Assembly (NCBI RefSeq): GCF_947179165.1
Contig: NC_077237.1
Location: forward strand, 62,479,523 to 62,543,522
Direction: 5' to 3'
From: Solanum dulcamara
Lineage: Eukaryota > Streptophyta > Magnoliopsida > Solanales > Solanaceae
Length of the DNA stretch: 64,000 bases
Of this stretch, positions 12,673 through 56,098 are shown piece by piece. The translations under genes were made by a program, and so were the position numbers. Each line of letters begins with the position of its first letter. Position 1 is the first letter of the stretch. The notes under the pieces were generated by a model. The model saw nothing but the letters and a program-made list of their open reading frames with translations. It was not told the DNA's origin and searched no databases.

Positions 12673-12731
12673 GATTTAATTGAGAATCAATTAAGTCTTC
12701 ACACCATCCTTTCTACCCAATTACTGCAATG

Positions 12732-13865: not shown

Positions 13866-14062
13866 GTTCTCTTTTCCCGTTCTTCAAAACCTTCTGGTTT
13901 GAGCATATAAATTTCTTCTTCAAGTTCTCCATGAAGAAATGCAGTTTTGACATCTAACTGCTCTAAGTACAAGTCAAATGTAGCACACATCGCCAGGACC
14001 ACTCGAATTATTGTGAGTCGAACCACCGGAGAAAATATCTCATTGAAGTCTATACCTTCTTT
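13866..14062 (-). pseudogene. Copia RT, N-terminal stretch between stop and frameshift
   Basis: Continues the frame of 14063-15085 after a TAG at 14063-14065. It reads GIDFNEIFSPVVRL and then LEQLDVKTAFLHGELEEEIY, which holds the first RT Asp, then slips out of frame in an A-rich stretch near 13870-13885. The stop most likely replaces a Gln codon, given the family motif G-F-x-Q-K-x-G-I-D. Confidence 0.85.
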
Positions 14063-15782: not shown

Positions 15783-15785
15783 AAT

Positions 15786-16670
15786 CTAGACATCAGCGAA
15801 ACGTTTTCTGCCTTCATTATTTGATATTGCCTCACTACATAAAATATCGCCATTATCCGAGGTACATGCAACATTCCCTTGAGCATTTGATGGCTCAGGG
15901 TGTTCACTCTTCTTCTTGAACCGACAATCTTTCTTGAAGTGCCCTTTCTTGCCACAGTTGTAGCACTTGATATTCTTCTTACTTCTTGATTGAGATCTGC
16001 CATGATTGTGACTCTCACTGGGGCCACGTTCCGTTGGTCTTTCTCTCACCATCATCAAAGCTTCAGCTTGCTGCAAACTTGCTTGTCTGTCTTCCTTATT
16101 TTTGCGCCTATTGTCTTCTTCCAAGACAGCGGCTGCAATTTCATCGAAAACTAGACTGTCTGTATTGTTTGTCAGATTGATGATGAGTTGATCATACGAG
16201 TCAGGCAGACTTTGAAGTAAAAGCTCCGCACGTTCAGTCCCTTCTATTTTGCAACCCATTATTGTAAGTTGCGAAAACAGAGTATTCAAAGTATTGATGT
16301 GTTCAGTAACTAACATGGACTCTGCCATTCGAAGAGTATACAATCTTCTTTTTAAGAATATTTTATTATGTAAAGACTTGGCCTCATACAACCCCGTAAG
16401 AGTATCCCATATTTCCTTCGCCGTCTGCTTTTCCGCCACACTAGACAACACTTGATCAGCTAGTGACAAGTGTAGATCAGCAACTGCGTTGCTGTCTATG
16501 TCATTCCACTTGCTGTCATCAACAAAGTCTGTGTGGCTGCCTTCAATTGCAGCTAAGCAATTGTCTTTTCTCAGTATTGCTTTTATTTTTATTTTCCACA
16601 ATGAGAAATTAGTCTCATTGAATTTCTCAACGTCAAACTTTGTTGTACTCGACATTGTTATTTGTTTCAC
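15786..16670 (-). CDS. Copia Gag (capsid and nucleocapsid), ends at in-frame TAG
   Basis: 294-aa open stretch, typical of Tnt1-like Gag. The N-terminus has FDVEKFNETNFSLWKIKIK; the UBN2/gag-polypeptide region has AKEIWDTLTGLYEAKSLHNK and LLLQSLPDSYDQLI; the nucleocapsid zinc knuckle is CYNCGKKGHFKKDC (C-x2-C-x4-H-x4-C, about residues 237-250). It packages the element RNA in cytoplasmic particles. In related elements gag and pol form one ORF; here TAG (15786-15788) stands where a Trp is usual before the protease D-T-G, so the simplest reading is a point mutation (TGG to TAG). The upstream Met codons at 16670 and 16655 are both possible starts; the second (MSSTTKFDVEKF) fits the family better. 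Confidence 0.9.
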   Translation of the reverse strand: MKQITMSSTTKFDVEKFNETNFSLWKIKIKAILRKDNCLAAIEGSHTDFVDDSKWNDIDSNAVADLHLSLADQVLSSVAEKQTAKEIWDTLTGLYEAKSLHNKIFLKRRLYTLRMAESMLVTEHINTLNTLFSQLTIMGCKIEGTERAELLLQSLPDSYDQLIINLTNNTDSLVFDEIAAAVLEEDNRRKNKEDRQASLQQAEALMMVRERPTERGPSESHNHGRSQSRSKKNIKCYNCGKKGHFKKDCRFKKKSEHPEPSNAQGNVACTSDNGDILCSEAISNNEGRKRFADV

Positions 16671-16836
16671 ACCCTTCTAGATCGTTTCTGAATATTTTTG
16701 CGAACAATCGTGACTAACTGTACCGTCACCAAAATTTACTATTTACGTGAATAGTACTATTCACCGAATTTTACTATTCACAAAAAGTTACTATTCACTG
16801 ATAGTACCTTTGCATAAAATAGACAGAATAACCGAG

Positions 16837-16850
16837 GTCTTTGATACCAC
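16837..16850 (-). other. Copia primer-binding site (initiator tRNA-Met type)
   Basis: The minus strand reads TGGTATCAAAGACC just after the 5' LTR end. The first eight bases match the complement of initiator tRNA-Met 3' end used by most plant LTR elements. Confidence 0.85.
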
Positions 16851-17292
16851 TGTTGGGGTGAGGAAGCACCACAACTAAAGTTTGATATGATGAAAATATT
16901 GAAAATAAATTGGACACGAGAATTTTACGTGGAAACCCCTCTAATTGATAGAAGGGAAAAACCACGGGTAGAAGGATGTCACTATTTTTGTATGGAGTAC
17001 ACAGCTCTCAAATACAAGGAGAAAACAACAATTAACACTTCTCTCTTGCAAAAGGAACAACTACTAAAGAGGACACTCAAGACTACAATATTTATCTTGG
17101 TGTATTACTCTCTTTGTATTCTTACTCTCTCTTTCTGGGATGGGATAAATGAGGGCAAGAGGTCTTCTATTTATAGGAAACTAAAAACGCGTAAAATCCG
17201 CGTATTGAACCTTCCTTTTTTGACTACGCGTTCAAAACGCGTTTTGTTCCTTTTTTGACTACGCGTTCAAAACGCGTTTTGACTATCTTGCA
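16851..17292 (-). repeat. Copia 5' LTR with paired CGCG palindromes
   Basis: 442-bp LTR. Near its 5' (U3) end are two copies of the perfect palindrome CAAAACGCGTTTTG at 17233-17246 and 17268-17281, 35 bp apart, plus nearby ACGCG sites. CGCG boxes are known targets of CAMTA-type stress regulators in plants, so U3 enhancer function is a reasonable inference, comparable to the repeated boxes described in Tnt1. Confidence 0.9.
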
Positions 17293-17424: not shown

Positions 17425-18550
17425 GTGAGCTGCTGAAGATTGGCTCAAGAGGATCAAGAAACCGCCATGAGCTCTTCTTATCTATTTTTCTATTTTTTTT
17501 GGTGCTATGTAGTTCTTCACATTGGCTGTCTCTAATTGTAGTTATAGCTTCTTTGAAGAATACTTAGTTAGGATTATATTGTAAAGGGGAGCGTCTCCCT
17601 TGTTTTATTGCTTTCCTAGTTACCTTGTATTGAGAGGAGTCCTCTCATAGGTGCATAGTTACCTAGGGACCGTTGTTCTCTATTTTCTACTGTTGTGCAG
17701 GTACATTGCAGAACTGTAGAAGCTGCAGTTTTTGATATTGCTAGCAGCCTTACATGGTGCATACTAAACCACCTAGGAGCAGCAATCAGCAATAACCTGC
17801 AATAACTTGTTGTGGAGAAGACCATAACCTTTGTCCTTTGAGCTTGACAACAACATTCAGCAGCCTGTGATATTGCAGGGAGCACTGCAAGATGCATCCA
17901 CCTAGGAGCAGCACTCAGCAACAACCTGCAACATCCTATTGTGGAGAAGACCATTGGAATCTCTATTGAGCTTGGCATAATGTCACATTGGCTGTACTGC
18001 AGTGCTGTAGCAGCTGATCCAATTCATGGAATTCTTCCAATGCAAACATTTTCCAAAGGTTACTTAAGGTTGTCTAAGTACTACCACATACTTGAGCACA
18101 CAAAACCAAAGTTACTTCGAGGGGGACAAACAAGGAATGGCAAGCATTAGAAGAACAAATCTGAAAAGGACCAAAATTCATTGTAGGTGTTCTTTTTCTA
18201 TATGTAATTTTAGCCTCCTTTTATATTTGCATAGACTTTTCCTTTATCTATGTAAGGGGAGAGTCTCCCTTATTTGCGCTTTCCTAGAATTATTGTATTG
18301 AGAGGAGTCCGCTCTTAGGTGCATAGTCTAAGTTTGCTCCATCTTGTAAATGGGAATAAGTCGAATGGCCTTAGTAGGCTACTCGACTTATGAACCACCT
18401 TAATCACGGAGGTAACATTTATGTCCCCCTCCATGTATATTTTTTTGCTTCTTATTTATAATAAGGCTTGGGGGTGCTCGGCTCAACCCCTGACCGCCAC
18501 GAGGGGCGAGATCCTTGGGTAAGGTCTGTTCTCCAAAAAGGAAAAAAAAA
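17425..18550 (+). other. LINE 3' region with internal duplications and A-rich tail
   Basis: No further gene. Two kinds of duplication are visible. The block GAGAGGAGTCC-TAGGTGCATAG with its GTCTCCCTT lead occurs at about 17585-17660 and 18250-18325, and diverged copies of the ORF end (GGGAATGGCAAG versus GGAATGGCAAGC) occur at 17370 and 18133, so the 3' end was tandemly copied (about 700 bp). Inside, CACCTAGGAGCAGCA is repeated at about 17770 and 17898. The end has GCTCGGCTCAACCCCTGACC and an A-rich tail. Confidence 0.6.
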
Positions 18551-20100
18551 CTGCCTTATGAAGGCCAAATGAACCACTGAAAAGAAAAACATATTGGAGG
18601 CTAACATTGAGACAAAAAATTAAGTTTTAAATTTGCAAGTTGACTAACAGTAAAAAACCACTATGCTAAGATACTAACTTTCCAAAAGAGTAAATCAAAT
18701 GAAAGAGAAAATGCAGTAACCTGGAGGTATACATGCTCATAATAGGTATAAAATACATGAGTCTAACCTTGCGACATACAATTTATTTTAGAATTTGGAA
18801 GTTCAGTAACTAAAAACAACCATTTGTTCGGGATGGGGATTGTCATACTTCATTCTCATTTAATTCTTACCAGTCTAATACTTTATATTGTTGTTTGTTC
18901 CTCTCTTTGTGGTACTATGGTTGTTAGTGTACTTTTAGTAGTTGTTTTATTTTCTTCATTGTTGTTTTTTCCATTTCATACCTACGTTGACATGTGCTAC
19001 TCGAGGATCAAAGATTCATGGTCATTTCAGGTACTTTATTTTATTCAGTTGTACTTACTGGCAATTGTTGTAGCAGTTCCAATTAATACATTAGCTTTCG
19101 GCAGTCAAAAAAATGAATGCAGAGATGGTCTTGGTCAATGATGTAGAGTTTGGCTGCATTGTTCTCCCTTTTTGTTATCCCCTTTAGTAGAATCTCCTTT
19201 CTGCTCCATTCAAAATTTGAAACCTCAACCTTAGGATTGGAGGTGAAGGGTGTTTCGCATCCAAGCAACTCCATCTTGTCCTTTTAGTTGCAATACCATC
19301 TAGAATACTCCTTTTAAAAGTTAAACTGCCTTATGAAGGCCAAATGAACCACTGAAAAGAACAACATATTGGAGGCTAACATTGAGACAAAAAATTAAGT
19401 TTTAAATTTGCAAGTTGACTAACAGTAAAAAACCACTATGCTAAGATACTAACTTTCCAAAAGAGTAAATCAAATGAAAGAGAAAATGCAGTAACCTGGA
19501 GGTATACATGCTCATAATAGGTATAAAATACATGAGTCTAACCTTGCGACATACAATTTATTTTTGAATTTGGAAGTTCAGTAACTAAAAACAACCATTT
19601 GTTCGGGATGGGGATTGTCATACTTCATTCTCATTTAATTCTTACCAGTCTAATACTTTATATTGTTGTTTGTTCCTCTCTTTGTGGTACTATGGTTGTT
19701 AGTGTACTTTTAGTAGTTGTTTTATTTTCTTCATTGTTGTTTTTTCCATTTCATACCTACGTTGACATGTGCTACTCGAGGATCAAAGATTCATGGTCAT
19801 TTCAGGTACTTTTTTTTATTCAGTTGTACTTACTGGCAATTGTTGTAGCAGTTCCAATTAATACATTAGCTTTCGGCAGTCAAAAAAATGAATGCAGAGA
19901 TGGTCTTGGTCAATGATGTAGAGTTTGGCTGCATTGTTCTCCCTTTTTGTTATCCCCTTTAGTAGAATCTCCTTTCTGCTCCATTCAAAATTTGAAACCT
20001 CAACCTTAGGATTGGAGGTGAAGGGTGTTTCGCATCCAAGCAACTCCATCTTGTCCTTTTAGTTGCAATACCATCTAGAATACTCCTTTTAAAAGTTAAA
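18551..20100. repeat. 775-bp direct tandem repeat, two near-identical copies
   Basis: Unit 18551-19325 and unit 19326-20100, both starting CTGCCTTATGAAGG; only a few differences are visible (for example AAAAAC versus AACAAC near the start). Each unit has a 105-codon + strand ORF and a 63-codon - strand ORF (18824/19083 and 19599/19858), but neither resembles a known protein and both are carried by the repeat, so I do not call genes. A minus-strand segment (GGAGTTGCTTGGATGCGAAA...) in each unit resembles tRNA-derived SINE heads in nightshades, with low confidence. Confidence 0.9.
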
Positions 20101-20480
20101 CTGCCTTATGAAGGAAAAATGAATTCCTGAAAAAAATAACATATTGGAGGCTAACCTTGCGACATAAAATTTTGTTTAAAATTTGCAAGTTGACTAAATA
20201 TTAAAAAGCACTATGTTAAGATACTAACTTCCCATAAGATTAAAGCAAACGAAAGAGAAAATGCAGTCATCTGGGGGTATACATGCACATAATATGCGTA
20301 ACATACATGAGTCTAACTCTGCGACATGCAATTTATTTTTGAATTTGGAAGTTTAGTAACTAAAATCAGCCACTATGTTAAGATACAAACTTCACATAAG
20401 TGATAAGCAAATGAAAAAAAAATTGTGATCGGAATGAGGATTACCTTCTTAAACAACATATATATACGCATAATAGGTAC
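20101..20480. repeat. Third, diverged partial copy of the 775-bp repeat
   Basis: Begins CTGCCTTATGAAGG in register with the preceding copies and can be followed through CCTTGCGACATAAAATT and a TAAGATACTAACTTCC block, then loses similarity. It is clearly more diverged than the first two. Confidence 0.75.
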
Positions 20481-26248: not shown

Positions 26249-28632
26249 TGTAACACCCCTAAAAATGTTGTATATGTTGTTCCAATTCTCGACGAAAATG
26301 ATACTGTTTTTTATTTTGTGCCTAACTTTTCATAAGATGGTCTAAGTTAGGTGATTCAAATTTTTGAATAACCCCAACATTATTATCTACAACTTTTGTG
26401 AAATGGAGCTTAAGAATCAGAGGCTAAATAGGTCAAATAAATTAATCTTTGCAAGATGGTGCTGTGATGAAATGGAGTGTTTGTAGAAGAAAATTCATAA
26501 CTCACTGTAGGATGATCCCATTAAGTTGATTCTTGAATGACATGAAAGGAGACTTCTAGAGCTACAATTCATATGGCATCAAATCCTAATTAGGAAATTA
26601 TTTTATTCAAACGTAGCTGCAAAAAAAGGTATTCCGTAAAAAAAAAGATTCATCTCACCAAACATGGAAGATCTAGATCCATTTGACATCACCCATGACA
26701 ACAATAGTCCTTCATTTGACATCACCCACGACATCACAATCCTCCATTAAATTTTTAGATTTTTCTTTATAATTATTTTAATTATTGTTAAGTCCCTCTT
26801 TCACACCTATGAATACCCATTTTATTTCATCAAGCTTTCTCAAGCAACTTTTCTCTCTATACACTTTTTAACTCATTCTCAAAATATAGTTTTAGGTCTT
26901 AGTAATGTAAAAATACTACTCCGGTGATTCATATAGTCCGGGTAATACAAAAAACGTTCCGACGAGGAGAAAATGTTAGGATTCAAGAGTGTTCATTAAG
27001 TCCTTCGATTATGAGTAAAGCTTTGGATTCCAGGTATGTAAGACTTCAATGAAAGTATTCCTTCCACTAACATTCCTAAAGTATTTTGATTATATGATAA
27101 ATTATGTTTATTTACCAAAATATTTTCAAGATGTACTCTAAGGTATGTGGGTGTTTATCCACAATTTTTTTCCACCCATGTAGTCCAAACCTTTTTCAAC
27201 TAAATCTCTTGATTTCAAGTAATATTTTCTTATGTGTAATTCTTATTTCTACTTAATATCATGAATCATGGTTAAACTAATGACTATTGGTCTATTTTGA
27301 TGCAAAATAATTTAATATGTATGAATTTATGGTTTGCAAGTACTTTTTCTATTTAGCTCTTTAAAGGTTCATGAAATTCATGATGGGTTGTTTAAAACAT
27401 GATTTTTAATTTAGGGATTTCAAAGTATTTATACATAATTTCATTTTCATATATGTTTGAAAGTTGAAGTGATTTGAACCCACCTAGTTTTACTATGTTT
27501 TGAATGAAGTTTGACTTGAAAACTTTGACACCAAATGAATGTTTATGAAAGCAATGTTTATGATAAAAAGGAAGTCTTATGAAATAAAAGAATGATGAAA
27601 TGATATGAACGATGTATTTTTTATGCAATAAGGACAATTCTTGCATATTTGAATTACCAAAGGTTTTAATGAGCTATTCTACCGAATATGATATTTTGAA
27701 TTCTCAAGCTATATGCTATGACTATTTTGAAGTATTAAGCTATTCTACAGAATTGACTTACCACCGAATCGGTCATTGAGGTGGGATTAGATAAGAGAAT
27801 CCTAGTTGCAACCCCTTATCTCATTAACTATGTGCCAACATAGGAGCCCTTATAGGCTTAGGCTAATGGATCCAGGAAAACCCTTAAAGTTAAAGTTAAA
27901 AAATAAATGTAAAATTGACGGACTTCTACCCTAGGCAAGTAGACTCCCCAATAAATGTAGGGGGTTATGTTGGATTTAATGTAATAGATAACATGGTCTT
28001 AATGTCGGTTATAGTCAACTCCCCACAAATGAATGTTTCAAATGCTATTTACATGATTAACCATGCATGTATATATCCACATATGTATGATTTAGATGCT
28101 ATCTACTTGATTTCTTATGCGCGCACTCATTTATGTACTTTACATTATAAATTTCCTAAAAGTTTTACTTTGTAATGCATGCCTACATACTTAGTACATT
28201 CAAAGTACTAACACATACTCTTTTGCCTACATGATATCACCATGTAGGGACCAGTGCTCCTTCGTGTTCTCCTCCACGTGATTAGTTGAGATTTCGTTTG
28301 AAGGCTACTTTTGGTGAGTTCCCATGTTTCGAGAATAATACTCTTTTATCTTTCTATTTTATGATATGTTGAGATCCTTAGACACTTACTATGACATATT
28401 TTTCTATTATGATTGAGGGTGAGCTAGGGACTTGTCATAGCATTATTAAATCTAAAAATTAGAGGTATTGTTGGACATATGTAAGTTGACGATTTACTAT
28501 TATGATTTCTGCTTGTTTATTTATTTTCCTTACCTATGAAAGGCTAAAAGAAATACTAAGAGGCTTGTTTGAGGTACTTTCGGGTTTTTCATTCTCCATG
28601 TCACGTTAAGGCCCTAGGCTTGGGTCATGACA
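26249..28632 (+). mobile_element. 5' LTR of gypsy element C
   Basis: 2384-bp LTR from TGTAACACCCC to GGGTCATGACA, followed two bases later by a clear primer-binding site and a gag start. No 3' LTR is found in the window, since the element is cut in gag. Two strong stem-loops lie at 28191-28248. Short ORFs inside are incidental. Confidence 0.85.
28191..28248 (+). other. Perfect stem-loop pair in LTR of element C
   Basis: First stem TTAGTAC (28191-28197) with GTACTAA (28205-28211), 7-nt loop. Second stem CCTACATG (28226-28233) with CATGTAGG (28241-28248), 7-nt loop. Both are perfect; the module ends about 385 bp before the LTR end. Confidence 0.75.
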
Positions 28633-28847: not shown

Positions 28848-29470
28848 ATGACTCGTAGAAGAGAACCTCCAAGACCAAGGGTTGATAATGAGGACCAAGC
28901 TCCTCTGGTTCCCGATGCCCCACATCATGAGGAAGGGATAACCCATGTTGAGTTTTAAAATATCATTACGTTGTTGGCTCAAGTCGTAGCCAACCAAGGG
29001 CATCAAGGTGTTCCTCCTCTCCAAATGAAAAATCTGGCCTCTAGGATTCGGGATTTCCAAAGGATGAATCCGCCCAAGTTCAATGGTTCTAAACTAGATG
29101 AGGACCCTATGGAGTTCATTGATGAGGTGTATTGAATTGGTGATATCATAGGTTTGCCACCGAATGAGAAGGTCGAGCTAGTCGATTATCAACTCAAAGG
29201 TGTGGTTCGAGTGTGGTACAAACAATGGGATGTTGAGAGGGATGAAGAAATGGGGCCGATAGGATGGGAAGAGTTCAAAGGTGCCTTCCTAGACTATTTC
29301 TTCCCATTAGATCTAAAGGAGGCCAAAATCCAAGAGTTCATCAACCTCCATCAAGAGAGTATGAGCATAAGGAAGTATGCCCTCAAATTCACTAAGTTGT
29401 CAAAGTATACTCCCTTCATGGTCTCCGACCAAAGAACTAGGATGAGCAAGTTTATTTCTAGTGTCTCAAG
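28848..29470 (+). pseudogene. Gypsy Gag, N-terminal and capsid part (element C), truncated
   Basis: Starts MTRRREPPRPRVDNEDQAP, the basic-proline start common in plant chromovirus Gag, then TAA after about 37 codons. The reading continues as a spacer (LAQVVANQ), the capsid entry RIRDFQRMNPPKFNG, and from 29154 an open stretch with VELVDYQLKGVVRVWYKQW, AFLDYFFPLDLKEAKIQEF and IRKYALKFTKLSKYTPFMV, the retrotransposon gag domain. Similarity stops near 29470, where sequence belonging to element G (opposite strand) begins; the zinc knuckle and all of pol are missing. Confidence 0.85.
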
Positions 29471-30119
29471 CTTGGAACTGTCCCAAAGATCCTAATCCTG
29501 AACCATGTTTCTAATTGAAGGGGGGATTATTCACTGTTCTAGCTACTAGAAAGCTGGTATAATCACCTCTTGCCCTCATCTGGGGTACTCTTAGGATCAA
29601 TGATCTAAGATGTCGAAGTCATAGTAGCCTTGAGAAGACCGACTTGCAAGAATATAGCCACCATAACCTGAAGAACCCACATCTCATCCCTAGAAACTCT
29701 GCTAATGCTAGGACCACCCTGCTATCCAAGAGTTCATCAACCTCCATCAAGAGAGTATGAGCATAAGGAAGTATGCCCTCAAATTCACTAAGTTGTCAAA
29801 GTATACTCCCTTCATGGTCTCCGACCAAAGAACTAGGATGAGCAAGTTTATTTCTAGTGTCTCAAGCTTGGAACTGTCCCAAAGATCCTAATCCTGAACC
29901 ATGTTTCTAATTGAAGGGGGGATTATTCACTGTTCTAGCTACTAGAAAGCTGGTATAATCACCTCTTGCCCTCATCTGGGGTACTCTTAGGATCAATGAT
30001 CTAAGATGTCGAAGTCATAGTAGCCTTGAGAAGACCGACTTGCAAGAATATAGCCACCATAACCTGAAGAACCCACATCTCATCCCTAGAAACTCTGCTA
30101 ATGCTAGGACCACCCTGCT
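29328..30119. repeat. 396-bp tandem duplication spanning the C/G junction
   Basis: 29328-29723 is repeated at 29724-30119 with no difference that I could find by eye. The unit contains the end of the C gag (+), the junction near 29470 and about 250 bp of G gag (-). It is therefore younger than the joining of the two elements. Confidence 0.92.
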
Positions 30120-30456: not shown

Positions 30457-32716
30457 TGTAACACCCCAAAAGTCAAAAAGTTAGAACCAAGGAGAAAAGT
30501 CTCAAAATTTAGAACTGGCTCATGTTCACTAGTCACTCTATGACTCATAGAGCCTTCTACGACTTGTAAGAGTGAGTCGTAGAGTGAGTCAAAAAGGTTT
30601 GTCCAAAACAAACCTTAGATGACATCCTACAACCAAACATGATGAGTCGTAGGACTTTTTACAACCCATAATACCCAGTGATAACCCAAACTTAGAGGCC
30701 ATGTTTTAGAAGTCCATCAAGGTCAGGTCTACAACTTGACAGGATGGCCCGTAGAAGTTGTTATGAGTAGTAGAAACAACTTGTAACCAAAGAATAGAGG
30801 CTCTCAAAGTTGCAAATTTTGGGAGTTGCAGGATAGACCAATTCTATGACCCATAGACGAGTTGATGAGTCGTAATAACGAATCATTCCAAAACTTTGCA
30901 GGCTTAATTTTAAGCCCATTCCTCATACTTGCAAAACAAGTTGTCTTGACGACTCGTTGTTTCTTCTACGACCCATAGAAGGGGTCTCTTAGGTCCAAAA
31001 TTCTGAAGTTTAATGAGGGGAAATTAGGTGATTTCCTAAGTTCGATTCAGTGAACCTAGAAATGATTATGGACAAGTTCAACCCTATATCTAACCATTTC
31101 TTTGAAATTCCCTCATTCTAAAACATTTCTTTGAAATTTCCTCATTCTAAACCATTCTTCTAAAATTTCACTAAGGCAAGAACTCCAAATCTCTCTCAAG
31201 GTTTCTCTTTAAGTTCAAGCTAGGGTTTCACATTTCTTCCAATATTTCTTCTTTAATTCTAAGTTAAAACACTCAAGGTATGTGGAGATTGATCCATGGG
31301 TCGCTTTCACCCATGGAGTCCCAAGTTTTGTCAAGGTTTCTTTCCATTTCAATTGAATTATGAACCCTAGTTTTGATGAATTGCACTAGGCTATTTCTAT
31401 TTCATTTTGAGTTATTATCAATGATTATTCTAAGCATGTTTCTATATGAATTGAATGATTTTAAGTTGAATTATGGATGCTCATGTATAAATGTATCTCA
31501 ATTATGATTTTAAGATTCAAAGATGATTTTCATGAGTTGAGTATGAGTTCAATGATTTTAAAGGAAAGTTTTAAAGATGTAAAGTTGAGATTATGATTTT
31601 TAAGTAATGAAGTTATGATGAAGATCAAGTTATGATCAAGAAAGTTATTATGGTATGATAAGTCCAATTCTCACACAATCATATTAAGGATGGTGATAAG
31701 TACAATTCATATCGAAGTTATGGATTCTTATGAATCACTAAAGTTAATAAGCTATTCGTCATATGTTTTGTAAATATGGATTAATAGGCAGTTACTATCT
31801 TTTCCTATAATGTTATGATCATATTTTAATAAATTCCATTGAGATATTTACTAAGCTCGAGAGGACTTCTGGGTGGGATTTGGTTCGGTAACACAGTTAG
31901 TTACCTAAGAAAATCCTAGTAGCAACCTGAAGTCCCAAAATATATTGCCCACGTAGGTTGCCTTCATGTCCTAGCTAGTGGATCCATGACGGAGTACACC
32001 CTAGCATAGTAGCCTCCCCCTTCTGGATGAGGGTTCCATCGAATTCTATATTATAGATCTCTTGTTCTTAGATGTCGGTTAAAGGTCCTATTCCATACAA
32101 GTTGAAGTTAAGCTATGAGTTATATGATGAGGTTTTATGATATGCAGTGAACATAAGTTTTCATATATTTTCAAATGTATTTAAGCCATACTCATATTCA
32201 TTATGATTGGTCATGCATTTTATGGCATATTATTTATGTTCCTTTACTTGTTCATACATACCTCACATACTTAGTACATTCAATCATGCTAACTCATATT
32301 TTTAGTACATTGTCTCATAATGTAGGGGCGGACGACACTCACGATAATCCTATTCGTGGCTAGAGTTGATTAGATATTAAGGGTTGGTGAGTCTTCATCT
32401 TATCAAGGGCAATGATTTTTTTTCATATTGCTACGATTTTACTTCCCTTTATGCTCAAATGAGATAGGACCTTGTCCTAAGCCCCCATTAAAGATTATAC
32501 TAGAGGCATGCATAGATGATGTTATGATGTAGTCAGTATTGGACATCTATTGAGTTGATTTCTCTTAGTCCTACTCCCTTAAGTTGATTACTTCCTCTTA
32601 TATCTTATTATCATGTTCTTTACCGTATGAATACAATGTATGCTAAGATGGATTGGTTGATGTCCCTTACTTCCCAATCGCCATGTCACAGCTTGGCCCT
32701 AGTTCGGTATGTGACA
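30457..32716 (+). repeat. 5' LTR of element B
   Basis: 2260 bp from TGTAACACCCC to GTATGTGACA, followed by a primer site. Its first two thirds align with 37694-39160 and its last 700 bp with 53638-54353. Many repeats of the type ACTCATAGA-GAGTCGTAGA lie in 30520-31000. Confidence 0.88.
32271..32325 (+). other. Stem-loop pair in 5' LTR of element B
   Basis: TTAGTAC (32271-32277) and CATGCTAA (32285-32292), partly mispaired. Then TACATT (32306-32311) and AATGTA (32319-32324) with a 7-nt loop GTCTCAT. About 440 bp before the LTR end. Confidence 0.5.
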
Positions 32717-37693: not shown

Positions 37694-39160
37694 TGTAAGA
37701 ACCTGGAAGTCAAAAAGTTGGAACCAAGGAGAAAATTCTCAAACTTTTGAACTGAATCATGTTCATGAGTCACTGTACGACTTGTAGATCCTTCTATGAC
37801 TCGTAAGAGTGAGTCCCAAGAGATCTTCTAGAAGAAACCTTATATGACACCCGACAATCCAACATAATGAGTCGTAGGAGGGTTTATGACCCATAATACC
37901 CAGTCGTAACCCAATCTCAAAGAACATGTTTCAGAAGTGCCTCAAGGTCAAGTCTACGACTTGATAGGACGGTCTATATAAGTTGTTACGAGTGGTAGAA
38001 AATACTCCTAACCAAAGATTAGAGGCTCTCAAAGTTATAAGTTTTGGGACCTGTAGGGCAGACCAAGTTTATGACCCGCAGACGATTTGATGAGTCATAA
38101 TAATGACTTGTTCCAAAACTTTTGAGGCTCAATTTTAAGCCCATTTCCCAGACCTGCAAGACGAGTCGTTACAACCCGAAGAAGGGGTCTCGTAGGTCCA
38201 AAAATCCAAAGTTTAATGAGGGGTAATTAGGTCATTTTCCAAGTTGGTTCAATGAACCTAGACATGATTATGGCCATGTTCAAAACTATATCTACCCAAT
38301 TCTTTGAAATTCCCTCATTTTAAATTCTTCTTCTAAAATTTCACTAAGGCAAGAACTCCAAATATTTCTCAAGGTTTCTCTTCAAGTTCAAGCTAGGGTT
38401 TCAGATTTCTTCCAAGGTTTTTTCTTCAATTCTAAGTGAAAACACTCAAGGTATGTGGGGATTGATCCATAGGTTCCTTCCACCCATGGAGTCCCAAAGT
38501 TTTCTCAAGGTTTCTTTCAATTTTAATTGAATTATAAACCCTAGATTTGCTGAATTGCATTGGGCTATTTCAATTTTATTTTGAATTGTTATCAATGATT
38601 ATTCTAAGTATGTTTCTACATGAATTGCATGATTTTAAGTTTAATTATGGATGTCCATGCATAAATCTATCTCAATTATAATTCTAAGGTTCAAAGATGA
38701 TTTTCATTAGTAAATTATGAGTTCAATGATTTTCAAGCAAAGTTTTCATGATGTAAAGTTGAGATTATGATTTTTAAGTGACAAAGTTATGATGATGATC
38801 AAGTTATGATCAAGAAAGTTATTATGGTATGATAAGTCCAATTCTCACACAATCATGTTAAAGATGGTGCTAAGTACAATTCTCACCAATGTTATGGATT
38901 CTTATGAATCACTAAAGTTAATGAGCTATTCCTAATATGTTTTGTATAGATGGATTGATAGGCATTACTATTTTTCCCTATAGTATTATGATCATGTTTT
39001 AATGAATTCCATTGGGATTTTGAATAAGTACCGAGAGGACTTCTAGGTGGGGTTCGATCCGGTAACGCAGTTAGTTACCCAAGATAATCCTAGTAGTAAC
39101 CTAAAGTCCCAAACTATGTTTCCCATATAGGTTGCCTTCATGTCCTAGCTAGCGGATCCA
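37694..39160 (+). repeat. 3' LTR of element B, left part
   Basis: Aligns with 30457-31990 of the 5' LTR from TGTAAGAACC through GTTGCCTTCATGTCCTAGCTAG to GGATCCACAT, then stops abruptly. The continuation (5' LTR: TGACGGAGTACACC) is found at 53638. Confidence 0.85.
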
Positions 39161-39915: not shown

Positions 39916-42263
39916 TATGACGACCCAACTCCGTAGGCCGTGACTGGTGCCCGAGTTAGGCATCCATACATACCCTTAACCCCACTTAGCGTGTTAGCAG
40001 AATAAACAAAAGTAGAAATCAAAAAAGGGTCGCTAGAGAGCGCATGAGAACAAATATAGCACAAGAGGGCCATTAAGGCCATCATGGAACACAAAGCCAA
40101 AAACATATATACATAACCCATATCACAAATCTATAGACCTCTACAGAATGATAGCCTAGTCATATGATGGGACAGGGCCCCATCGTACCCTTAACCAACA
40201 TGTACAAATGTACAACAAAAAAATTAGTACCAAAATAGGGCTCCAGACAAAGGAGCACTACTAACCAACAGGGTGGATATCCTAAGCGAGCAGATAAGCA
40301 ACCCGAGCTTCTATACCTGCAGGCATGTAACGTATCCCCTGAAGAAAGGGGGTCAGTACAGACAATGTACCGAGTATGTAAAGCATGGATTGTAACAGAT
40401 AAAGACATTACCAGAAAAGAAGGAGCAAAATGAGCAAAATATCCAGAATATCAAAATGCTTTTCATAACCACAGATAATGTATGCAGAAAAACATATGCC
40501 ATATCCGGCCCTATTATGGGACTTAGTGAACAAATCATGGTCGCTGTCCCATCACTGGCGTCACAACACATCATAACTCTAGAGTAGGGAATATCTCCGT
40601 AACAGATCATATAACATTAGATGGTCATATCATATCATATCATATCATATGTGTACATGGAATGTCATAACTCTACAAAAACTATGTACAGGTCATACCT
40701 ACCCTCTCACATCGGGGCATGGCGAAAAATGTAGAGAAGTACACACAATAACAAAACCTGACCTTTGCTTGGTGAAGGAAGCATTGAGGCATCCACGAGT
40801 GGAGTAGTGAGAAACAAAATGCAGTTTAAATCATTTTTGAGATTCGATGGAGTTAACAAAATGAGCTATTATCCAAAAATCAAGACAAGAGTCATATCAA
40901 GTACCTTTTGAGTATCACTATGAGTTATATCCAAATAGAAATTTTGGAACCATATACACATATCTAGGCACGATAAAATATCCTTTGAAAAATCAAGAAG
41001 TTGGCCATCCTAGCGGTTCTATGAATAGGAACTTCCTTGGAATCATATAAAAGTCATATACTTATTTCATAAAACCATGACAAAAAGGAAGATTAGATTT
41101 TTATACTTATGTCAAAACATTCCAAGAGAAAGAATAAGCTTTACATACTTATGTCAAAGACATGCTAAAAGAAGGAAAGATTAGTTGTACATACCTCTTA
41201 CGGATTACTCCTAATACATTTGCCTCATCGTCTCTTGAACCTATATAACATGAAAGTAATACTATGGTTAATGAAATTTCACTTTCCAATTCCAACTCTA
41301 CAACCAAGTCTTCATAGAGGTCATTTGTTTATCCATTTCCCTCGACTAGTTCATTACTAGTTTCTAAGTTATCAAAACTTGGGCAGCATCTCCCCTATAA
41401 CTTCAACATCCTCAAGATTTCAACTCGGACAACATGTCAACAACCATACGAACAAAAACAACCAGAAGCATATATACAAGTAAATCACTTCAACATTACT
41501 CAATACAACTCTAAACCACTAGCTCCGAACTACGATACCAAAATGGAGTTCTTAGCCTTTATTTCATAAAATCTTTTATCATATGAAATGGAGGGTCGCG
41601 TGGATGCAACCAGAAGCACCCATACCCCTTTTTGAGTACTTGTCAGCCCTGCAACACCGAATTAAGCCACCCCAACCTGCAGCACCACAACAACAACACA
41701 CTACTCGACTTTAATTTACCTACTATGACTTCAATTTAGTTTGTTTCTAACGTCAAACATCCTTATACACTTTTTCCACTTACAGCCTCACTTAAGACAT
41801 GTAATATACCTCATAACATCATCATAAACTCCAGTTCGAAATGTAAAACTTTACCTTACCCGAAACTCGCCAAAACTTGCCGGAACTCGCCTCGAAATTT
41901 CCTTTAGCGCAGCTAAAACTTCCGGGCTGTTTGTTAATGTTTTAGGGCTGCTCCAAACCATAAATTTACATTACCAATACCTTCATAACATATTGTTATA
42001 CACTAGATAATTAATTTATGGAATGAAATCATAGAGCTTACTTGTTTCCTCTCCAAATCCGTGGCCTTCTCTCTCTACCTATCTAGTTTCTTCTCTTCCT
42101 TTCTCTCTTATTCTTGAGTTTTCTAGAAATTTATGGAAATTTGATAAGTCTTAAGACATATATATATAGGCCACTTTAGGAAGGGACACATGTCATCCCC
42201 TAAGTGGTGACACATGTCAATCCCTAAGTGGTGACACATGTCAAACCCTCATTGGGCCAACAC
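39916..42263 (-). mobile_element. Solo LTR E, 3' part (split by element D)
   Basis: Minus-strand LTR of the D family. Its terminal TATGACGACCC (TG changed to TA) starts right after GGCTC (39911-39915). It includes the stem-loop block near 40330-40373 and an (ATCAT)n run near 40625-40650. It is interrupted at 42263 by D and continues at 52621. With its two parts joined by position it measures about 2.86 kb. Confidence 0.85.
40336..40373 (-). other. Stem-loop pair in LTR E (partly decayed)
   Basis: In + coordinates: CCCCT and GGGGG arms with loop near 40337-40352, then TCAGTAC (40353-40359) and GTACCGA (40367-40373) with a 7-nt loop and one mismatch. Confidence 0.5.
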
Positions 42264-45200
42264 TTTCATGACCCAATCCCATAGGCCGCGACTGGGGTTT
42301 GACTTGGACCCCCACATACATATTTATCATCTGTGGTCAAGCCAAATTATAGACACGTAATGCATATAAATCAAGTGTAGTCAAACTGAACTACAAACAA
42401 CAAGATACGTACATGAGAACCCCCATGGGTCATAGCATTTCATATATCTGTAGCTTCTTTCATTTGCATCATAATATGAAAGGGCACGCAAGCCGACAAG
42501 GCTTCCATAATATAATAACATATATCATACATCATGTAGACCCAGATAAACCAAACTGACATATACAACCCACATATACATATCTGCAGACCTCTAAAAA
42601 TATTAACGATAACATATGGCGGGACAGAGCCTCTGCCATACCCCTGAATAACAAAAAATATTATATACATCAGTGGCCAGTATCAAAAACTAGACTCCTA
42701 TACAATAGAGCCGCTTCCAACTGAGCTGAATGGAATCCTAAACTAACAAACTCCCAAAACCTATATCTGTACCTGCGGGCATGAAACGCAGCCCCCCGAA
42801 GAAAGGGGGTCAGTACGATATATGTACTGAGTATGTAAAACATAAAATAATACAACCGGAAGCATATCTAAGACAGAGAAATAGGAGATAATATATCAAA
42901 TCAGAAATTTGTACCTGTACCCTATGAATCATAAAAAGTGTGCATGCTCAAATTATACCATATAGCCAGCCCTATCAGGGGTCCGATAAATACATTTGTA
43001 GAACCATCATAGGCCCCGTGTCATCACCACCTTATTACAATACATTATCATATATATACATACGTAACCCGACCCTCTAGTGAGGGGCGGTAGATAATGA
43101 AGTGGAATTGAGCACAAATCTGATAAGCGGCCCAGGACTCAGAGAAAAAGGGTTACAGTATACACGAATAGAATAGTGAGTAACTATATGCAATTTAAAT
43201 CATTATCAGAGACTCGACAGAATAAGAAAGTTAGGCTTTTGCCTGAGGACTCGAGTACTAGTGTCGTCATCTCGAGTGTCCTCTAAATGCCATTATGGGC
43301 TATACCAATTGTAACTTTGGGGACCTTAGACATGTACCTACGTAAGGACAAGTTGCTTATGGAATCAGAAACACTTGTTATCATATAGTCTTTAAGACTT
43401 AGAGCCTGTACATTTGGTACCTCTTTAACATATAGAAGTTTCTAGGGAAATCGCTCAACTATTATAGTAATTCAATACTCAGAAGTAAATAAGAGATGCT
43501 TAAGAATAGAATTAATCCAGAGCTCATACCATATTTAACTTACAACTAAGACATGCCAAACAGAAAGAGAATAAGCTCTATCTAGTCTGTACTTCCCTTC
43601 GTGTGGTCATCATGTACATAATTCATACTCGGCCCATACTGGGGATCGATGAACAACTATGGCATCATAATCTCATTTTCATACCAAGTACATATCAACA
43701 GAAAGGAGAGATAGCCTTCCAGACACTACTTTTTGACATGTAGAAGCCTTAACAGGCAATACTCAATTCTTACAGAAGTTTCAATATTAAACAGTGGATA
43801 GGGGTTATGAGACATACTTGGAGTTATGGAAATGGAATTACCCCCATATTTCACATACAATTCACTTACGGCTAAGAAACTCCAAAAGGAAAGAAAGATA
43901 GCTTTACATACTGATGCCAAATACATGCCAAGAGAAAGCTTCACATACCTCGTATGGACTTCTCTTAATTACGTCCACTTCGTATTCCTCCAAACCTATT
44001 TAACATGGAATCAATGTGATTATCAACAACCTTAAACTTTTAAGTTCCTTCAGTTTCACCTTGGTATTCATGGAACTTATGTCCTTGTTCGTCTCCTCGA
44101 CTAGGTCTTTAATTAGTTAAGGTGTTAACGAAAATTGGGCAGCACCTCCCCTATAATATGCCCTATCCGAATTTCCAATTACATCTCTAATCACTAAAGA
44201 CAACCAAAAATAACATCCTGCAGCATATATACACCTAAAACATGACAACATTACACAACACAAGCTCCAAACCACTTGGTGAAAATTATGATATCAAAAT
44301 AGGGTTTCTAGTCTTTATTTTGAAAGCCTTTATTTATACAAAATGAGGGGTTGTGTGGATGAAACAAGAAGAACCCACACCCCTAATAGAACACATTTAG
44401 TCCCTAAAAAAAAACCCCACACACTTGCAACAGCACACCACAAGTACAACACTTTACTTCGATGGCAATTTAACTATAACGACTCCAATTTAGATTGTCT
44501 TCGACGTCAAGCATTTCTATGAAATTTTGACATTTACAGCCACCTATAGTGAGTGTAAGACAATCCATAACAGAACCATAAAGTTCAAATTGAAAGGTGA
44601 AACCTTACCTTACTCGAAATTGGCCAAAACTCGCCAAAACTGCATCTCAGAAACTTCTTGATGTGCTGAATTGAGGCGGACTGTTTGTGTCCATTTTCCG
44701 CTGCACCAAATTGATTTTTTTTTAATAAAACACTATTATATATCCGTGGGGTACCTCAACTAATTAATTCACGAAACAAAACTCGGAGGCTTACCTTGGC
44801 AGCCCCAACCCATAGCCCCCCTAGCTTGTACCCCTAGCATTTTTCTCTTTTCCTTTCTCACTTTTCTAGGCGTAAAACTGAAGAATTGATTTCGTAGACG
44901 TATTAAGATACATATATACATATCCACGTGGTTGAGGAACACTGTAGATAATTAATATATGGAGAAAAAGTGGAGGTTTACCTTTCTTTTTCTTGTTGCC
45001 GCCATAACCCTCTCTCTTAGTCTTAGGTTTCTTTTCCTTTGCTTTCTATAAGTTTCAGCTCAAATGAATTAGGAAATGAATTAGTAGTCATCTAAACACA
45101 TATATATACACCTCATTAGGAGGTGACATATGTTATCCCCATAGGGTGACACATGTCCAGCCCCTATTGGGCCATGTATCCATGCTATGGCTCCTAGGCT

Positions 45201-49641: not shown

Positions 49642-52620
49642 TGTGACGACCCAATCCTGTAGGCCGTGATTGTGGTCCGACTTAAACCCCCGTATACATA
49701 TTTATTAGTTATGGTCAAGCCAAATTATAGACACGTAATGCATATAAATTAAGTGTAGTAAAACCGGACTACAAACAACATGATACTTACATGAGAACCC
49801 CCATGGGTCATAGAATTTTATATATCTGTACCCTCTTTCATTTTCATTATAATACGAAAGGGCATGCAAACCAAAAAGGCTTCCATAATATAATAACATA
49901 TATCATACATCATGTAGACCCAGCTGAATCAAACTGACATATACAACCCAAATATACATGTCTACAAAGCTCTAAAAATATTAACGACAATATATGGCGG
50001 GACAGGGCCCCCGCCGTACCCCTGAATAATAAAAATAATTATATACATCAGTGGTTAGTATCAAAAACTAGACTCCGATACAATAGAGCCTCTTTTAGCT
50101 AAGCTAAATGGAATCCTAAACTAACGGACTCCCAAAACTTATATCTGTACCTGCGGGCATGAAACGCAGCCCCCCAAAGAAAGGGGGTCAGTACGACATA
50201 TGTACTGAGTATGTAAAACATAACATAATACAACTGGAAGCATATCTGAGATAGAGAAACAAGGGATAAAATATCAAATCAGAAATTTGTACCTGTACCC
50301 TATGAATCATAAAAAGTATGCATGCTCAAATTATACCATATAGTCGTCCCTATCAGGGGTCCGGTGAATACATATATAGAACCATCATAGGCCTCATGCC
50401 ATCACCACCTTATTACAACACATGATCATATATATACATACATAACCTGACCCTCTAGTGAGGGGCGGTGGACAATGAAGTGGAATTGAGCACGAATCTG
50501 ATAACCGGCCTGGGACTTGGAGAAGAAAGGTTATAGTATACACAAATAGAGTAGTGAGTAACTATATGTAATTTAAATCTTTATCAGAGACTCGACAGAA
50601 TAAGAAAGTTAAGCTTTCGCTTGAGGACCCGAGTAGTAGTGTAGTCATCTTGAGTGTCCTCTAAATACAATTATGGGCTATACCAATTGTAACTTTAGGG
50701 ACCTTAGACATGTACCTACGTAAGGCCAAGTCTCTTATGGAATCAGAAACACTTGTTATCATATAGTCTTTAAGACATGGAGCCTATACATTTGGTACCT
50801 TATTAACATATAGAAGTTTCCAGGGAAATAGGTCAACTATTATAGAAATTCAATACTCAGAAGTAAATAAGATATGCTTAAGAATAGAATTACTCTAGAG
50901 AACATACCATATTTAACTTACAACTAAGACATGCCAAACAGAAAGAGAATAAGCTCTATATAGTATGTACTTCCCTTCGTGTGGTCATCATGTAAATATT
51001 CCGTACTCAGCCCATCCTGGGGCTCGGTGAACAATTACGGCATCATCATTTCATTTTCATACCAAGTACATATCAACAGAAAGGAGAGATAGCCTTCCAG
51101 ACACTACTTTTTGACATGTAGAAGCCTTAACAGGCAATACTCAATTCTTACAGAAGTTTCAATATTAAACAGTGGATAGGGGTTATGAGGTGTACTTGGA
51201 GTTATGGAAATGGAATTACCCCCATATTTCACATACAATTCACTTACGGCTAAGAAACTCCAAAAGGAAAGAAAGATAGCTTTACATACTGATGCCAAAT
51301 ACATGCCAAGAGAAAGCTTCACATACCTCGTATGGACTTCTCTTAATTACGTCCACTTCGTATTCCTCCAAACCTATTTAACATGGAATCAATGTGAGTA
51401 TCAACAACCTTAAACTTTTAAGTTCCTTCAGTTTCACCTTGGTATTCATGGAACTTATGTCCTTGTTCGTCTCCTCGACTTCGTCTCCTCGACTAGGTCT
51501 TTAATTAGTTAAGGTGTTAACGAAAATTGGGCAGCACCTCACCTATAATATGTCCTATCCAAATTTCCAATTACATCCCTAATAACTATATATAACCAAC
51601 AACAACATCCTTCAGCATATATACACCTAAAACATGGCAACATTACACAACACAAGCTCCAAACCACTTGCTGAAAATTACGATATCAAAATAGGGTTTC
51701 TAGTCTTTATTTCGAAAGCCTTTATTTATACAAAATGAGGGGTTGTGTGGATGAAAAAAGAAGAACCCACACCCCTACTAGAACACATTTAGTCCCTGAA
51801 ACAAACCCCCACACACCTGCAACAGTACACCACAAGTACAACACTTTACTTTGACGGCAATTTAACTATAACGACTCCAATTTAGATTGTCTTCGACGTC
51901 AAGAATTTATATGAAATTTTTACATTTACATCCACCTATAGTCTTGTAAAACACTCCATAAAAATAAATTAAAGTCCAAATTAAAAGGTGAAACCTTACC
52001 TTACCCAAAATTGGCCAAACTCGCCAAAACTACATCTCAGAAACTTCTTGATGTGCTGAATTGGGGCGGACTGTTTGTGTCTGTTTTCCGCTGCCCCAAA
52101 TTGAATTTTTTTTTATAAAACACCATTATATATCCATGGAGAACCTCAAATAATTAATTTACGGAATGAAACTCAGAGGCTTACCTTGGCAGCCCCAACC
52201 CGTAGCCCCTCTAGCTTGTACCCCTACCATCTTCCACGTGTCACTTCTCTAGGCTGCCACGTGGTACCTCATGTTGCTGCCACGTGGCATCTTATCCTTT
52301 TCTCCGTGGGTTTGTAATCTCATCTTATTTTAAGAACTCGTGTAAAACATTCTTCAGAAGCTTGGTATGCACTCAAGTATCTTAGGTATGTAAGACTTCC
52401 AAGTTAGTGTCTTATGTAGGTAAATCGAGTCCTATGACTCATTTCTTGGCCTCCTACTCCTTTCAGATTCTTATAACCGTATTTCCAACCTTCCCTATCA
52501 TGGGGTATCGCATTCTTCCTTCCTTAGAGTCATTTGATAGTGTGGTAAATTATCCGACTCACTTGCTAACTTCTAGGAAGCTTAGGAAGCATTCTGAGCT
52601 CAAGAGTATGGGGTGTAATA
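49642..52620 (-). repeat. 5' LTR of element D
   Basis: 2979 bp, ending on the minus strand in GGTCGTCACA. It is shorter than the 3' LTR because about 370 bp corresponding to roughly 44840-45220 is absent near 52230. A small extra duplication (CGTCTCCTCGACT) is present at 51467-51495. A stem-loop block equivalent to that in the 3' LTR lies at 50151-50208. Confidence 0.88.
50151..50208 (-). other. Three consecutive stem-loops in 5' LTR of element D
   Basis: In + coordinates: CTGCG (50151-50155) with CGCAG (50165-50169); a C-run with GGGGG about 50171-50187; TCAGTAC (50188-50194) with GTACTGA (50202-50208). Arms are kept although loop and flank bases differ from the 3' LTR. Confidence 0.75.
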
Positions 52621-53637: not shown

Positions 53638-54353
53638 TTGAAGGAGTATACCCTGGCAAGGTAGCCTCCCTCTTATTGATGAGAGTTCTATCAGATTTCA
53701 TGTTATAGGTCACATGGTCTTAGATGTCAGCTAAAGGTCTTATCCCACACAAGTTGAAGTGAAGTTATGATTTATATGATATGCATTGACCATGATTTTT
53801 TATATGTTTTCAAATTTATTTAAGCCATACTCATGTTCATTATGATTGGTCATGCATCTTATGGTATATTATTTATATTTCTTTACTTGTTCATGCATAC
53901 CTCGCATACTTAGTACATTCAAACATACTAACACATGTTTTGCCTATATTGTCTCATAATGTAGTGGAGGACGACACTCACGACCATCCTATTCGTGGCT
54001 AGAGTTGATTAAATATCAAGGGTTGGTCAGTCCTCATCTTATCGAGGGCAATGACTTTATTTCATATTTCTATGATTTTACTTCCCCTTATGTTCAAATG
54101 AGCTAGGAACTTATCCTAAGCCCTCATTAAAGATTAGACTAGAGGCATGCTTAGACGATGTTATGATGTAGTCCGTATTGGACATCTATTGAGTTGATTT
54201 CCCTTAGTCCCACTCCCTTAAGTTGATTACTTCCGCTAATATCTTATTGTCATGTTCTTTACCTTATGAATGCAATGTATGCTAAGATGGCTTGGTTGGG
54301 GCCCTTGAATCCTGGTTGCCGTGTCGTGGATTAGTCTAGTTTGGGTCATGACA
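53638..54353 (+). repeat. 3' LTR of element B, right part
   Basis: Aligns with the last 720 bp of the 5' LTR (from about 31990 to 32716), beginning GAAGGAGTATACCC (5' LTR GACGGAGTACACCC) and ending GGGTCATGACA. Together with 37694-39160 it covers the whole LTR with no overlap. A stem-loop pair lies at 53910-53964 (TTAGTAC with CATACTAA; CTATATT with AATGTAG around loop GTCTCAT). Confidence 0.85.
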
Positions 54354-55699: not shown

Positions 55700-55755
55700 C
55701 TGCATCACTAAAATAGATGCAGAGTGTAGTATGAGTACCAAAATAATAGGTACCT
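55700..55755 (-). other. Stem-loop pair in LTR of element G
   Basis: In + coordinates: CTGCATC (55700-55706) with GATGCAG (55716-55722), perfect, 9-nt loop; GAGTACC (55733-55739) with GGTACCT (55749-55755), GTAC core with mismatches at the outer positions. About 385-440 bp from the LTR end. Confidence 0.65.
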
Positions 55756-56098
55756 AGTAGGCATCATAGGCCAACTATGCTTGAAAAGTAAAGAAAATAT
55801 AAAAGAGGGAATAAAATAGAACAGAGGTCAAGAGCGGAAGTGTAAAGTAAAGTAATGAAGTGCACACAAGTGTAGAAAGAATTAACTAATCTATTACTAA
55901 GCTATACCTAACTGAACCTTATAAGCCAAGAAGGTACACTCATGCACAAGTTAAATAAAAACTCGAATGGACCTCCAAAAGGATGAAGAGTACATATAAT
56001 AGCTATAACTACCAAGAACTGAATTTGAGAACCTAATATAAAGAATGTAGAACCAAAACACTGTACCGAACAAGTAGAACCCAAAAGTATAGAGGCAA

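What the first reader, a model, noticed from the sequence alone, without database searches (positions are those of the whole stretch)
28191..28248. Double stem-loop module shared by all gypsy LTR families here, with arm changes that keep pairing
Each gypsy LTR whose 3' end is defined carries, about 420-570 bp before that end, a GTAC-core stem-loop followed by a second stem-loop. C: TTAGTAC/GTACTAA then CCTACATG/CATGTAGG, both 7-nt loops. D (both LTRs): TCAGTAC/GTACTGA then CCCCC/GGGGG (7-nt loops) and a third CTGCG/CGCAG. G: AGGTACC/GGTACTC then CTGCATC/GATGCAG (9-nt loop). B: TTAGTAC with a decayed partner, then CTATATT/AATGTAG. Solo LTR, E and A have worn versions. TTAGTAC/GTACTAA against TCAGTAC/GTACTGA is a paired change, and the second stem keeps its shape with unrelated sequence. 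Position and loop size are kept while sequence is not. That suggests a selected RNA (or DNA) structure in the R/U5 part of the LTR, possibly for poly(A) choice, packaging, dimer formation or start-site definition. I do not know of a name for it.
Basis: partly seen in the sequence, partly recalled or inferred. Interest (0 to 1): 0.85.

Follow-up and report, generated by a model that had tools for sequence, protein, structure and literature searches.

The report
Conserved paired hairpins in plant LTRs
Three otherwise dissimilar groups of jumping genes in this plant genome carry the same small two-hairpin element near one end of their terminal repeats, and the groups differ in ways that keep the hairpins paired, which suggests a shared control element whose exact job is still unknown.

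Summary
The module is real at 28191-28248 and has a counterpart, worn in some, in the nine gypsy LTR copies I defined in the window. They form three groups (C/B, D/E/solo, G/A) whose LTRs do not otherwise align above chance in the pairs tested. In the 942-Mb genome the first hairpin core has 16,033 exact matches in its C/B-D/E form (24 for the reversed control) and 2,079 in its G/A form (0 in control). It holds the most conserved blocks of the LTR 3' part in the two groups profiled. One pair of hairpin 1 is U-A, C-G or G-C in the three groups; hairpin 2 shows paired changes at two further pairs.

Corrections: one perfect double hairpin is not rare by chance. The second hairpin is related sequence between C/B and G/A; D's C-run/G-run stem is an extra hairpin. 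D/E copies show no covariation signal, and single mutated copies are not compensated, so support rests on a few deep events. Start and poly(A) sites are unknown; RNA rather than DNA function is not proven.

Best reading: a cis-acting RNA structure of these elements, a new member of the known kind 'structured R/U5 elements'. No Rfam match; no description met in my searches.

The parts
28191..28211 (+). C: hairpin 1 (H1), 7 bp, 7-nt loop
28226..28248 (+). C: hairpin 2 (H2), 8 bp, 7-nt loop
32271..32292 (+). B1: H1, 6 bp with one G-U, 10-nt loop
32304..32326 (+). B1: H2, inner 6 bp kept, outer two pairs broken
53910..53931 (+). B2: H1, 6 bp, 10-nt loop
53943..53965 (+). B2: H2, 7 bp with one G-U, 7-nt loop
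2725..2782 (+). Solo LTR of D type: worn H1, extra hairpin and H3
50188..50208 (-). D1: H1, 7 bp, 7-nt loop
50151..50187 (-). D1: extra C-run/G-run hairpin and H3 (CTGCG/CGCAG), the likely counterpart of H2
42773..42830 (-). D2: H1, extra hairpin and H3
40317..40373 (-). E: intact H1, extra hairpin, worn H3
55732..55756 (-). G: H1, 6 bp with one G-U, 9-nt loop
55699..55723 (-). G: H2, 8 bp with one G-U, 9-nt loop
9753..9779 (+). A: H1, 9 bp with one G-U, 9-nt loop
9787..9811 (+). A: worn H2, two pairs broken

Best explanation
The module is an old, homologous, base-paired cis element inherited by three groups of Ty3/gypsy LTR elements. It most likely acts in the element's own RNA as two short adjacent hairpins (three in D/E) in the leader part of the LTR, and so would be present at the 5' end and, if inside R, also at the 3' end of the genomic RNA. 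The likely work is one of the known jobs of such structures: choice of poly(A) site, first strand transfer, or genome RNA selection and dimer formation. Shown: recurrence, conservation peak, homology of C/B with D/E, and pair-preserving differences between groups. Inferred: homology with G/A (position, GTAC core, H2 sequence), that the structure forms in RNA, that it lies downstream of the start site, and which job it does.
For: Genome counts of the H1 core far above control: 16,033 against 24 and 2,079 against 0. H1 pair 2 is mainly TA or CG in one form (67 and 30 of the first 100 listed) and GC in the other (64 of the first 100). In both lists pair 3 varies A/G against a constant U and pairs in 98 of 100, as G-U in 74 of the G/A list, which an RNA stem allows. 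C/B, 17 copies: 93.7% of cells paired, four pairs with two-sided change, 1/500 shuffles for pairing; tree null 5/1000 for pairing, 33/1000 for two-sided cells. Between groups H1 pair 2, H2 pair 4 and the inner H2 pair change on both sides and stay paired; crude null 0.005 (H1) and 0.001 (H2). A C/B-only covariance model ranks D2, D1 and E next after its own members (E 0.0011, 0.0062, 0.088) against 0.5, 1.7 and 6.5 for sequence alone. Most conserved block of the LTR 3' part in both groups profiled.
Against: D/E, 24 copies: no covariation signal (covariation score 85/500 shuffles; two-sided cells 803/1000 in the tree null). C/B H1 alone is not significant (173 and 373 of 1000). Copies with a purine at H1 pair 2 (181) are not compensated: 2 of the 100 listed. 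In the nine-copy H1 alignment the number of two-sided pairs is as in shuffles (396/500). The inner GTAC/GTAC pairs come free with a repeated palindrome. B1, B2 and solo do not fold better than shuffles. The start site is not located: TATAAAT about 45 nt before H1 only in the C family, and TATA-like runs about 160 bp after H1 in D, G and A.
Confidence: 0.5

Rival explanations
1. A DNA-level element of the promoter region: inverted-repeat binding sites (for example two GTAC-core sites, the core I recall for plant SBP/SPL factors) for a dimeric protein. Symmetric changes then follow from co-evolving half-sites and not from RNA pairing.
For: GTAC twice, 7 or 9 nt apart, is the invariant heart of H1. 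TATA-like runs lie about 160 bp after H1 in D1, G and A, which would put the module in U3.
Against: Many G-U cells, which are mismatches in DNA half-sites: pair 3 of H1 is G-T in 74 of 100 listed G/A matches. H2 has no GTAC; its stem stays while its loop is 5, 7 or 9 nt. The C family has TATAAAT before H1 in the six forward copies printed.
Confidence: 0.25
2. A conserved leader or promoter sequence whose pairing is incidental. Descent explains the recurrence, repeated GTAC gives the H1 core, and the few paired differences are luck plus post-hoc choice of register.
For: Double hairpins are common in this DNA. No covariation in D/E. Single copies are not compensated. The H2 register between C/B and G/A was set with the structure in view; MAFFT alone places it two columns off.
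Against: Three states at H1 pair 2 on an alignment made without structure. Two transversions kept paired at the inner H2 pair: UA 7 and GC 4 of 11 C/B copies. Nulls.
Confidence: 0.15
3. The hairpins serve a splice donor placed in the LTR leader, as in foamy viruses, where U1 binding and RNA structure in R decide poly(A) site use.
For: D/E: CAG|GT directly after H3 in 11 of 13 copies, then CTRAC-like and U-rich sequence about 120 nt on. C/B: GTRAGT about 125 nt after the H1 start in 8 of 11. G: GGTAAGC about 115 nt after. Foamy virus precedent seen in passages of PMC3694450.
Against: The acceptor CAG is kept in only 6 of 13 D/E copies. A search for D/E copies with the two sides 0-25 bp apart found 0 matches, though no positive control of the unspliced form was run. 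The D donor is weak. Donor-like words are frequent. No transcripts seen.
Confidence: 0.1

Closest known systems
Retroviral R-region hairpins (HIV-1 TAR and poly(A) hairpin; foamy virus R stem-loops)
   Same: Short adjacent stem-loops in the LTR, proposed here for the same region and jobs. Foamy virus passages on R stem-loops, splice donor and poly(A) choice were read (PMC3694450); for HIV-1 only a search listing with abstract start was seen (PMC2645353).
   Different: No AAUAAA in these hairpins; R is not mapped here; sequences unrelated; plant gypsy elements.
Ty3 5'-leader dimerization site (PAL6) and structured 5' end
   Same: Ty3/gypsy relative with structured 5' RNA; passages of PMC11381356.
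   Different: PAL6 is a palindrome at the tip of a hairpin at nt 391-396 of the RNA; here the GTAC palindromes are in the stem and the loops differ between groups.
Tto1 redundancy (R) region, tobacco copia element
   Same: A plant LTR element whose R region was mapped functionally for strand transfer (one passage of PMC12786077).
   Different: Copia, not gypsy; the primary paper was not available, and any structure in it is recalled only.
General LTR models of Benachenhou et al.
   Same: They link residual conservation in long R regions of retroviral LTRs to stem-loops (passages of PMC3601003).
   Different: No plant gypsy clade and no such double hairpin in the passages read.

Membership tests
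Ty3/gypsy LTR retrotransposon (carrier) | gag, RT-RNase H and integrase pieces next to the LTRs | tested here: met
   Retrotrans_gag, RT_RNaseH_2, rve (below its curated cut-off) and SH3_Tf2-1 in six single open pieces of several elements; not tested for each element.
Ty3/gypsy LTR retrotransposon (carrier) | tRNA-Met-like primer site directly after the LTR | tested here: met
   C, D1 and G by sequence with 1, 0 and 2 mismatches; not met within 2 mismatches at B1, and the other five copies are 3' or solo LTRs or unclear.
Retroviral R-region hairpin | lies between RNA start and poly(A) site | not testable with these tools
   No transcript data; TATA-like runs on both sides.
Retroviral poly(A) hairpin | AAUAAA inside or at the hairpin | tested here: not met
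   No AATAAA in the nine window modules as printed.
Dimer initiation hairpin | palindromic loop conserved between families | tested here: not met
   Loops such as ATTCAAA, ATATGTC and TATTATTTT are not palindromes; GTAC palindromes are in the stem. Dimerization itself not testable.
Retrozyme / hammerhead LTR | hammerhead ribozyme match | tested here: not met
   0 Rfam matches at gathering score in the whole window.
Foamy-virus-like R splice donor | used 5' splice site in or beside the hairpin | tested here: inconclusive
   Donor-like words conserved, acceptor in 6 of 13; no intron-less copy found.
Conserved structured RNA | covariation above a phylogenetic null | tested here: inconclusive
   C/B pairing 5/1000 and two-sided cells 33/1000; D/E two-sided cells 803/1000; R-scape not available.

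The most novel reading that the evidence does not exclude
The pair H1-H2 is a cis-acting RNA control element older than the split of three LTR groups that share no other alignable LTR sequence. It is kept in about 18,000 copies with an exact H1 core and works like the R-region hairpins of retroviruses, perhaps by coupling a leader splice donor to poly(A) choice. It would be among the most widely kept structured RNA elements of plant gypsy elements.
Probability: 0.3. Interest if true: 0.75.

Novelty: new member of a known kind. Interest (0 to 1): 0.5.

Why it matters
LTRs are the fastest-changing part of these elements and often cannot be compared between families. A short paired core that can be recognised in about 18,000 copies gives a fixed landmark for LTR annotation and for placing R, and a concrete target for testing how plant gypsy RNA is selected, ended or copied, which is less studied than in yeast and retroviruses.

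Tried and rejected
Rejected: the double hairpin of C alone as evidence. Folding strength as evidence for B and solo. A cloverleaf in D: the closing stem in the longer D fold is altered in E and not shared by C. Transversion covariation at H1 pair 2 inside C/B or D/E. D/E copies without the would-be intron. Dimer by palindromic loops. Hammerhead or other Rfam family. Relatives in IMG/VR: two protein pieces and one DNA pattern gave nothing; the single GTDB match, in Exiguobacterium, looks like chance.

Led nowhere: H2 patterns for the whole genome did not complete. No metagenome scans were allowed. Rows dropped: of the 20 loci, 6 went into A9 and 10 into A10; L059 (worn), L062, L069 and L073 (near-duplicates by eye), all D/E type, were left out. 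The further C-family copies were not put into A9, as near-duplicates of C, and the 20 loci were not analysed. The 40 kb (L050-L053) were fetched but not searched. The 200 kb searched hold 4,792 N. In A9 one cell (L067, inner H2 pair) counts as unpaired because of gap placement.

Full report
What is there. The window is a nest of plant LTR elements. Self-comparison, primer-site search and Pfam matches in six single open pieces mark several Ty3/gypsy elements; one copia element and nested insertions are also present. The window lies in a genome of 942 Mb. I take the host to be a nightshade-like plant from memory only; no tool named it. I defined nine LTR copies with a recognisable 3' part: C, B1, B2, a solo LTR, D1, D2, E, G and A.

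The module. C carries exactly the two hairpins claimed. H1 has a counterpart in all nine copies (two broken pairs in solo), and H2 in most; H1 starts about 440-570 bp before the LTR 3' end. Local alignment shows three groups, C/B, D/E/solo and G/A: the four within-group pairs tested score far above shuffles, none of the 15 between-group pairs tested exceeds the shuffled maximum. D/E has one extra hairpin between H1 and the counterpart of H2.

Is it more than chance? A single perfect 7+8 bp double hairpin is not rare: 7 clusters against 3.4 expected for two strands. Folding is unusual for C, D1, D2 and G, modest for E and A, and not unusual for B1, B2 and solo. In a sliding scan of each LTR the module window ranks 1 of 93 (C), 3 and 2 of 93 (D1, D2), 2 of 93 (G), 7 of 93 (E), 6 of 93 (A), but 62 of 93, 15 of 65 and 65 of 93 in B1, B2 and solo. 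C to B1 and E to D1 keep none, and G against A keeps other hairpins, among them one at the LTR end.

Homology test. A covariance model built from C, B1 and B2 alone was searched over the window, both strands, no filters. After its own three sequences the best matches are D2 (E 0.0011), D1 (0.0062) and E (0.088), at the module and on its strand; in D2 and E the match runs through H1, and H2 of the model is not truly matched. Solo comes ninth (1.2); G and A modules are not found. A sequence-only profile gives D2 0.5, D1 1.7, solo 4.7, E 6.5. So the link of C/B to D/E is real and pairing adds to it; the link to G/A rests on position, the GTAC core and H2 sequence.

Genome-wide. A pattern fixing CATAYT and both GTAC blocks but leaving H1 pairs 2 and 3 and the loop free has 16,033 exact matches against 24 for the reversed pattern. 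Of the first 100 listed, pair 2 is TA 67, CG 30, CA 2, TG 1, and pair 3 pairs in 98. The G/A form has 2,079 matches against 0; of the first 100, pair 2 is GC 64, AC 17, GT 6, TC 5, GA 3, AT 2 and three single others (72 paired), and pair 3 pairs in 98, mostly as G-U. Both listings cover only contig C1 and are dominated by a few large families, so they are not independent samples. When the 5' base of pair 2 is a purine in the first form (181 matches, control 9), the partner stays A or G in 98 of the 100 listed by my reading: single copies decay without compensation, as expected of dead copies. The informative changes are therefore those between families.

Covariation. H1 in nine window copies, aligned by sequence alone: 92.3% of cells paired; pair 2 is CG 3, UA 3, GC 1, broken 2; 7 of 500 shuffles reach the pairing, but 396 of 500 reach the number of two-sided pairs. 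C/B group, 17 copies (3 from the window, 8 found through LTR similarity in 200 kb of arbitrary 10-kb stretches, 6 through the H1 pattern): 93.7% paired (1/500 shuffles), four pairs with two-sided change (47/500), nine such cells (3/500). Moving the inferred changes at random on a tree gives as much pairing in 5 of 1000 and as many two-sided cells in 33 of 1000; H1 alone 173 and 373 of 1000; H2 alone 15 and 29 of 1000. The six pattern-found copies were chosen with the inner H1 pairs fixed, which helps H1 but not H2. D/E group, 24 copies: 89.0% paired, no covariation signal (pairing 101/500, covariation 85/500; in the tree null pairing 24/1000, two-sided cells 803/1000). Between groups, H1 pair 2 (U-A, C-G, G-C), the inner H2 pair (U-A, G-C, C-G) and H2 pair 4 (A-U, G-C) all stay paired; a crude null that moves the 3' differences gives 0.005 for H1 and 0.001 for H2. 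These arms and the H2 register were set after seeing the data. In 20 G/A copies picked for varied H1 loops, the expected H2 stem of at least 5 bp is the best hairpin in 11 by my reading, with loops of 5, 7 or 9 nt; in many of these single copies shuffles do as well.

Conservation. In 11 C/B copies the best 20-nt block of 850 bp of LTR is H1 (pair identity 0.87, mean 0.48), with H2 fifth (0.78); in 13 D/E copies the best is H3 (0.88) and the second H1 (0.83; mean 0.52). Other blocks are kept too: C/B at -209, +120, +229 and +361, D/E at +197 and +231. No copy found through the H1 pattern was used in this profile. G/A was not profiled.

Where is the RNA start? The C family has TATAAAT about 45 nt before H1 in the six forward copies printed, the window's own included, which would put the start just before H1. 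The other families lack it there, and D1, G and A have TATA-like runs about 160 bp after H1. So the module may lie at the start of R, or in U3. No transcript data were available. Two observations lean to RNA of the plus strand: H1 pair 3 varies A/G against U, which is constant in the 200 listed matches, and H2 loop length changes while the stem stays. Neither is decisive.

Mechanism. I commit to an RNA leader structure at 0.5, a DNA-level inverted-repeat site at 0.25, incidental pairing in a conserved sequence at 0.15, and a splice-donor-linked variant at 0.1. The last arises from donor-like words after H3 (D/E, 11 of 13) and at about +125 (C/B, 8 of 11), against an acceptor CAG in only 6 of 13 D/E copies, and from the foamy virus case, where a donor in R and the fold around it control poly(A) choice (passages of PMC3694450). 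A search for D/E copies with the two sites 0-25 bp apart found none.

What is known. No Rfam family matches the window at gathering score. Ten literature searches brought up no description of this module in the listings, nor in the passages read of PMC3601003, PMC11656987, PMC11381356, PMC3735527, PMC12786077 and PMC3694450. That library holds open-licence papers only. The kind, structured control elements in LTR leaders, is well known; this one appears to be an unnamed member.

Noticed in passing
10192-10219 (+), 55317-55344 (-), about 28599-28632 (+), 32684-32716 (+) and 54321-54354 (+): A second hairpin at the very 3' end of the LTR, next to the primer site (11 bp in A, kept in G with one two-sided and four one-sided changes), resembles the retroviral U5 inverted repeat.
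   Followed up: partly
49996-50015 (-) and 40166-40184 (-): D/E group: another hairpin about 190 nt after H1, GGCGGG/CCCGCC in D1 against GATGGG/CCCATC in E, two pairs changed on both sides; lies in a conserved block.
   Followed up: partly
L031-L048 and window, about 50-190 nt after H1: Splice-site-like words in the LTR leader: CAG|GT after H3 in D/E, GTRAGT in C/B, GGTAAGC in G.
   Followed up: partly
G000:C1:7492814-7492895 (outside the window): Three H1 cores in tandem with a 28-bp period: the hairpin seems locally amplified there.
   Followed up: no
30457-32716, 37694-39160 and 53636-54355: One long B LTR pair in which the 3' copy appears split by the nested D/E insertions at 39160/53636.
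   Followed up: no
29328-30119: Exact 396-bp tandem duplication beside the gag region of the C element.
   Followed up: no
12216-17292: A copia element with near-identical repeats (98%) and long open frames, so a young insertion.
   Followed up: no
18548-20397: A 775-bp tandem repeat, two copies about 96-99% alike and a third more diverged.
   Followed up: no
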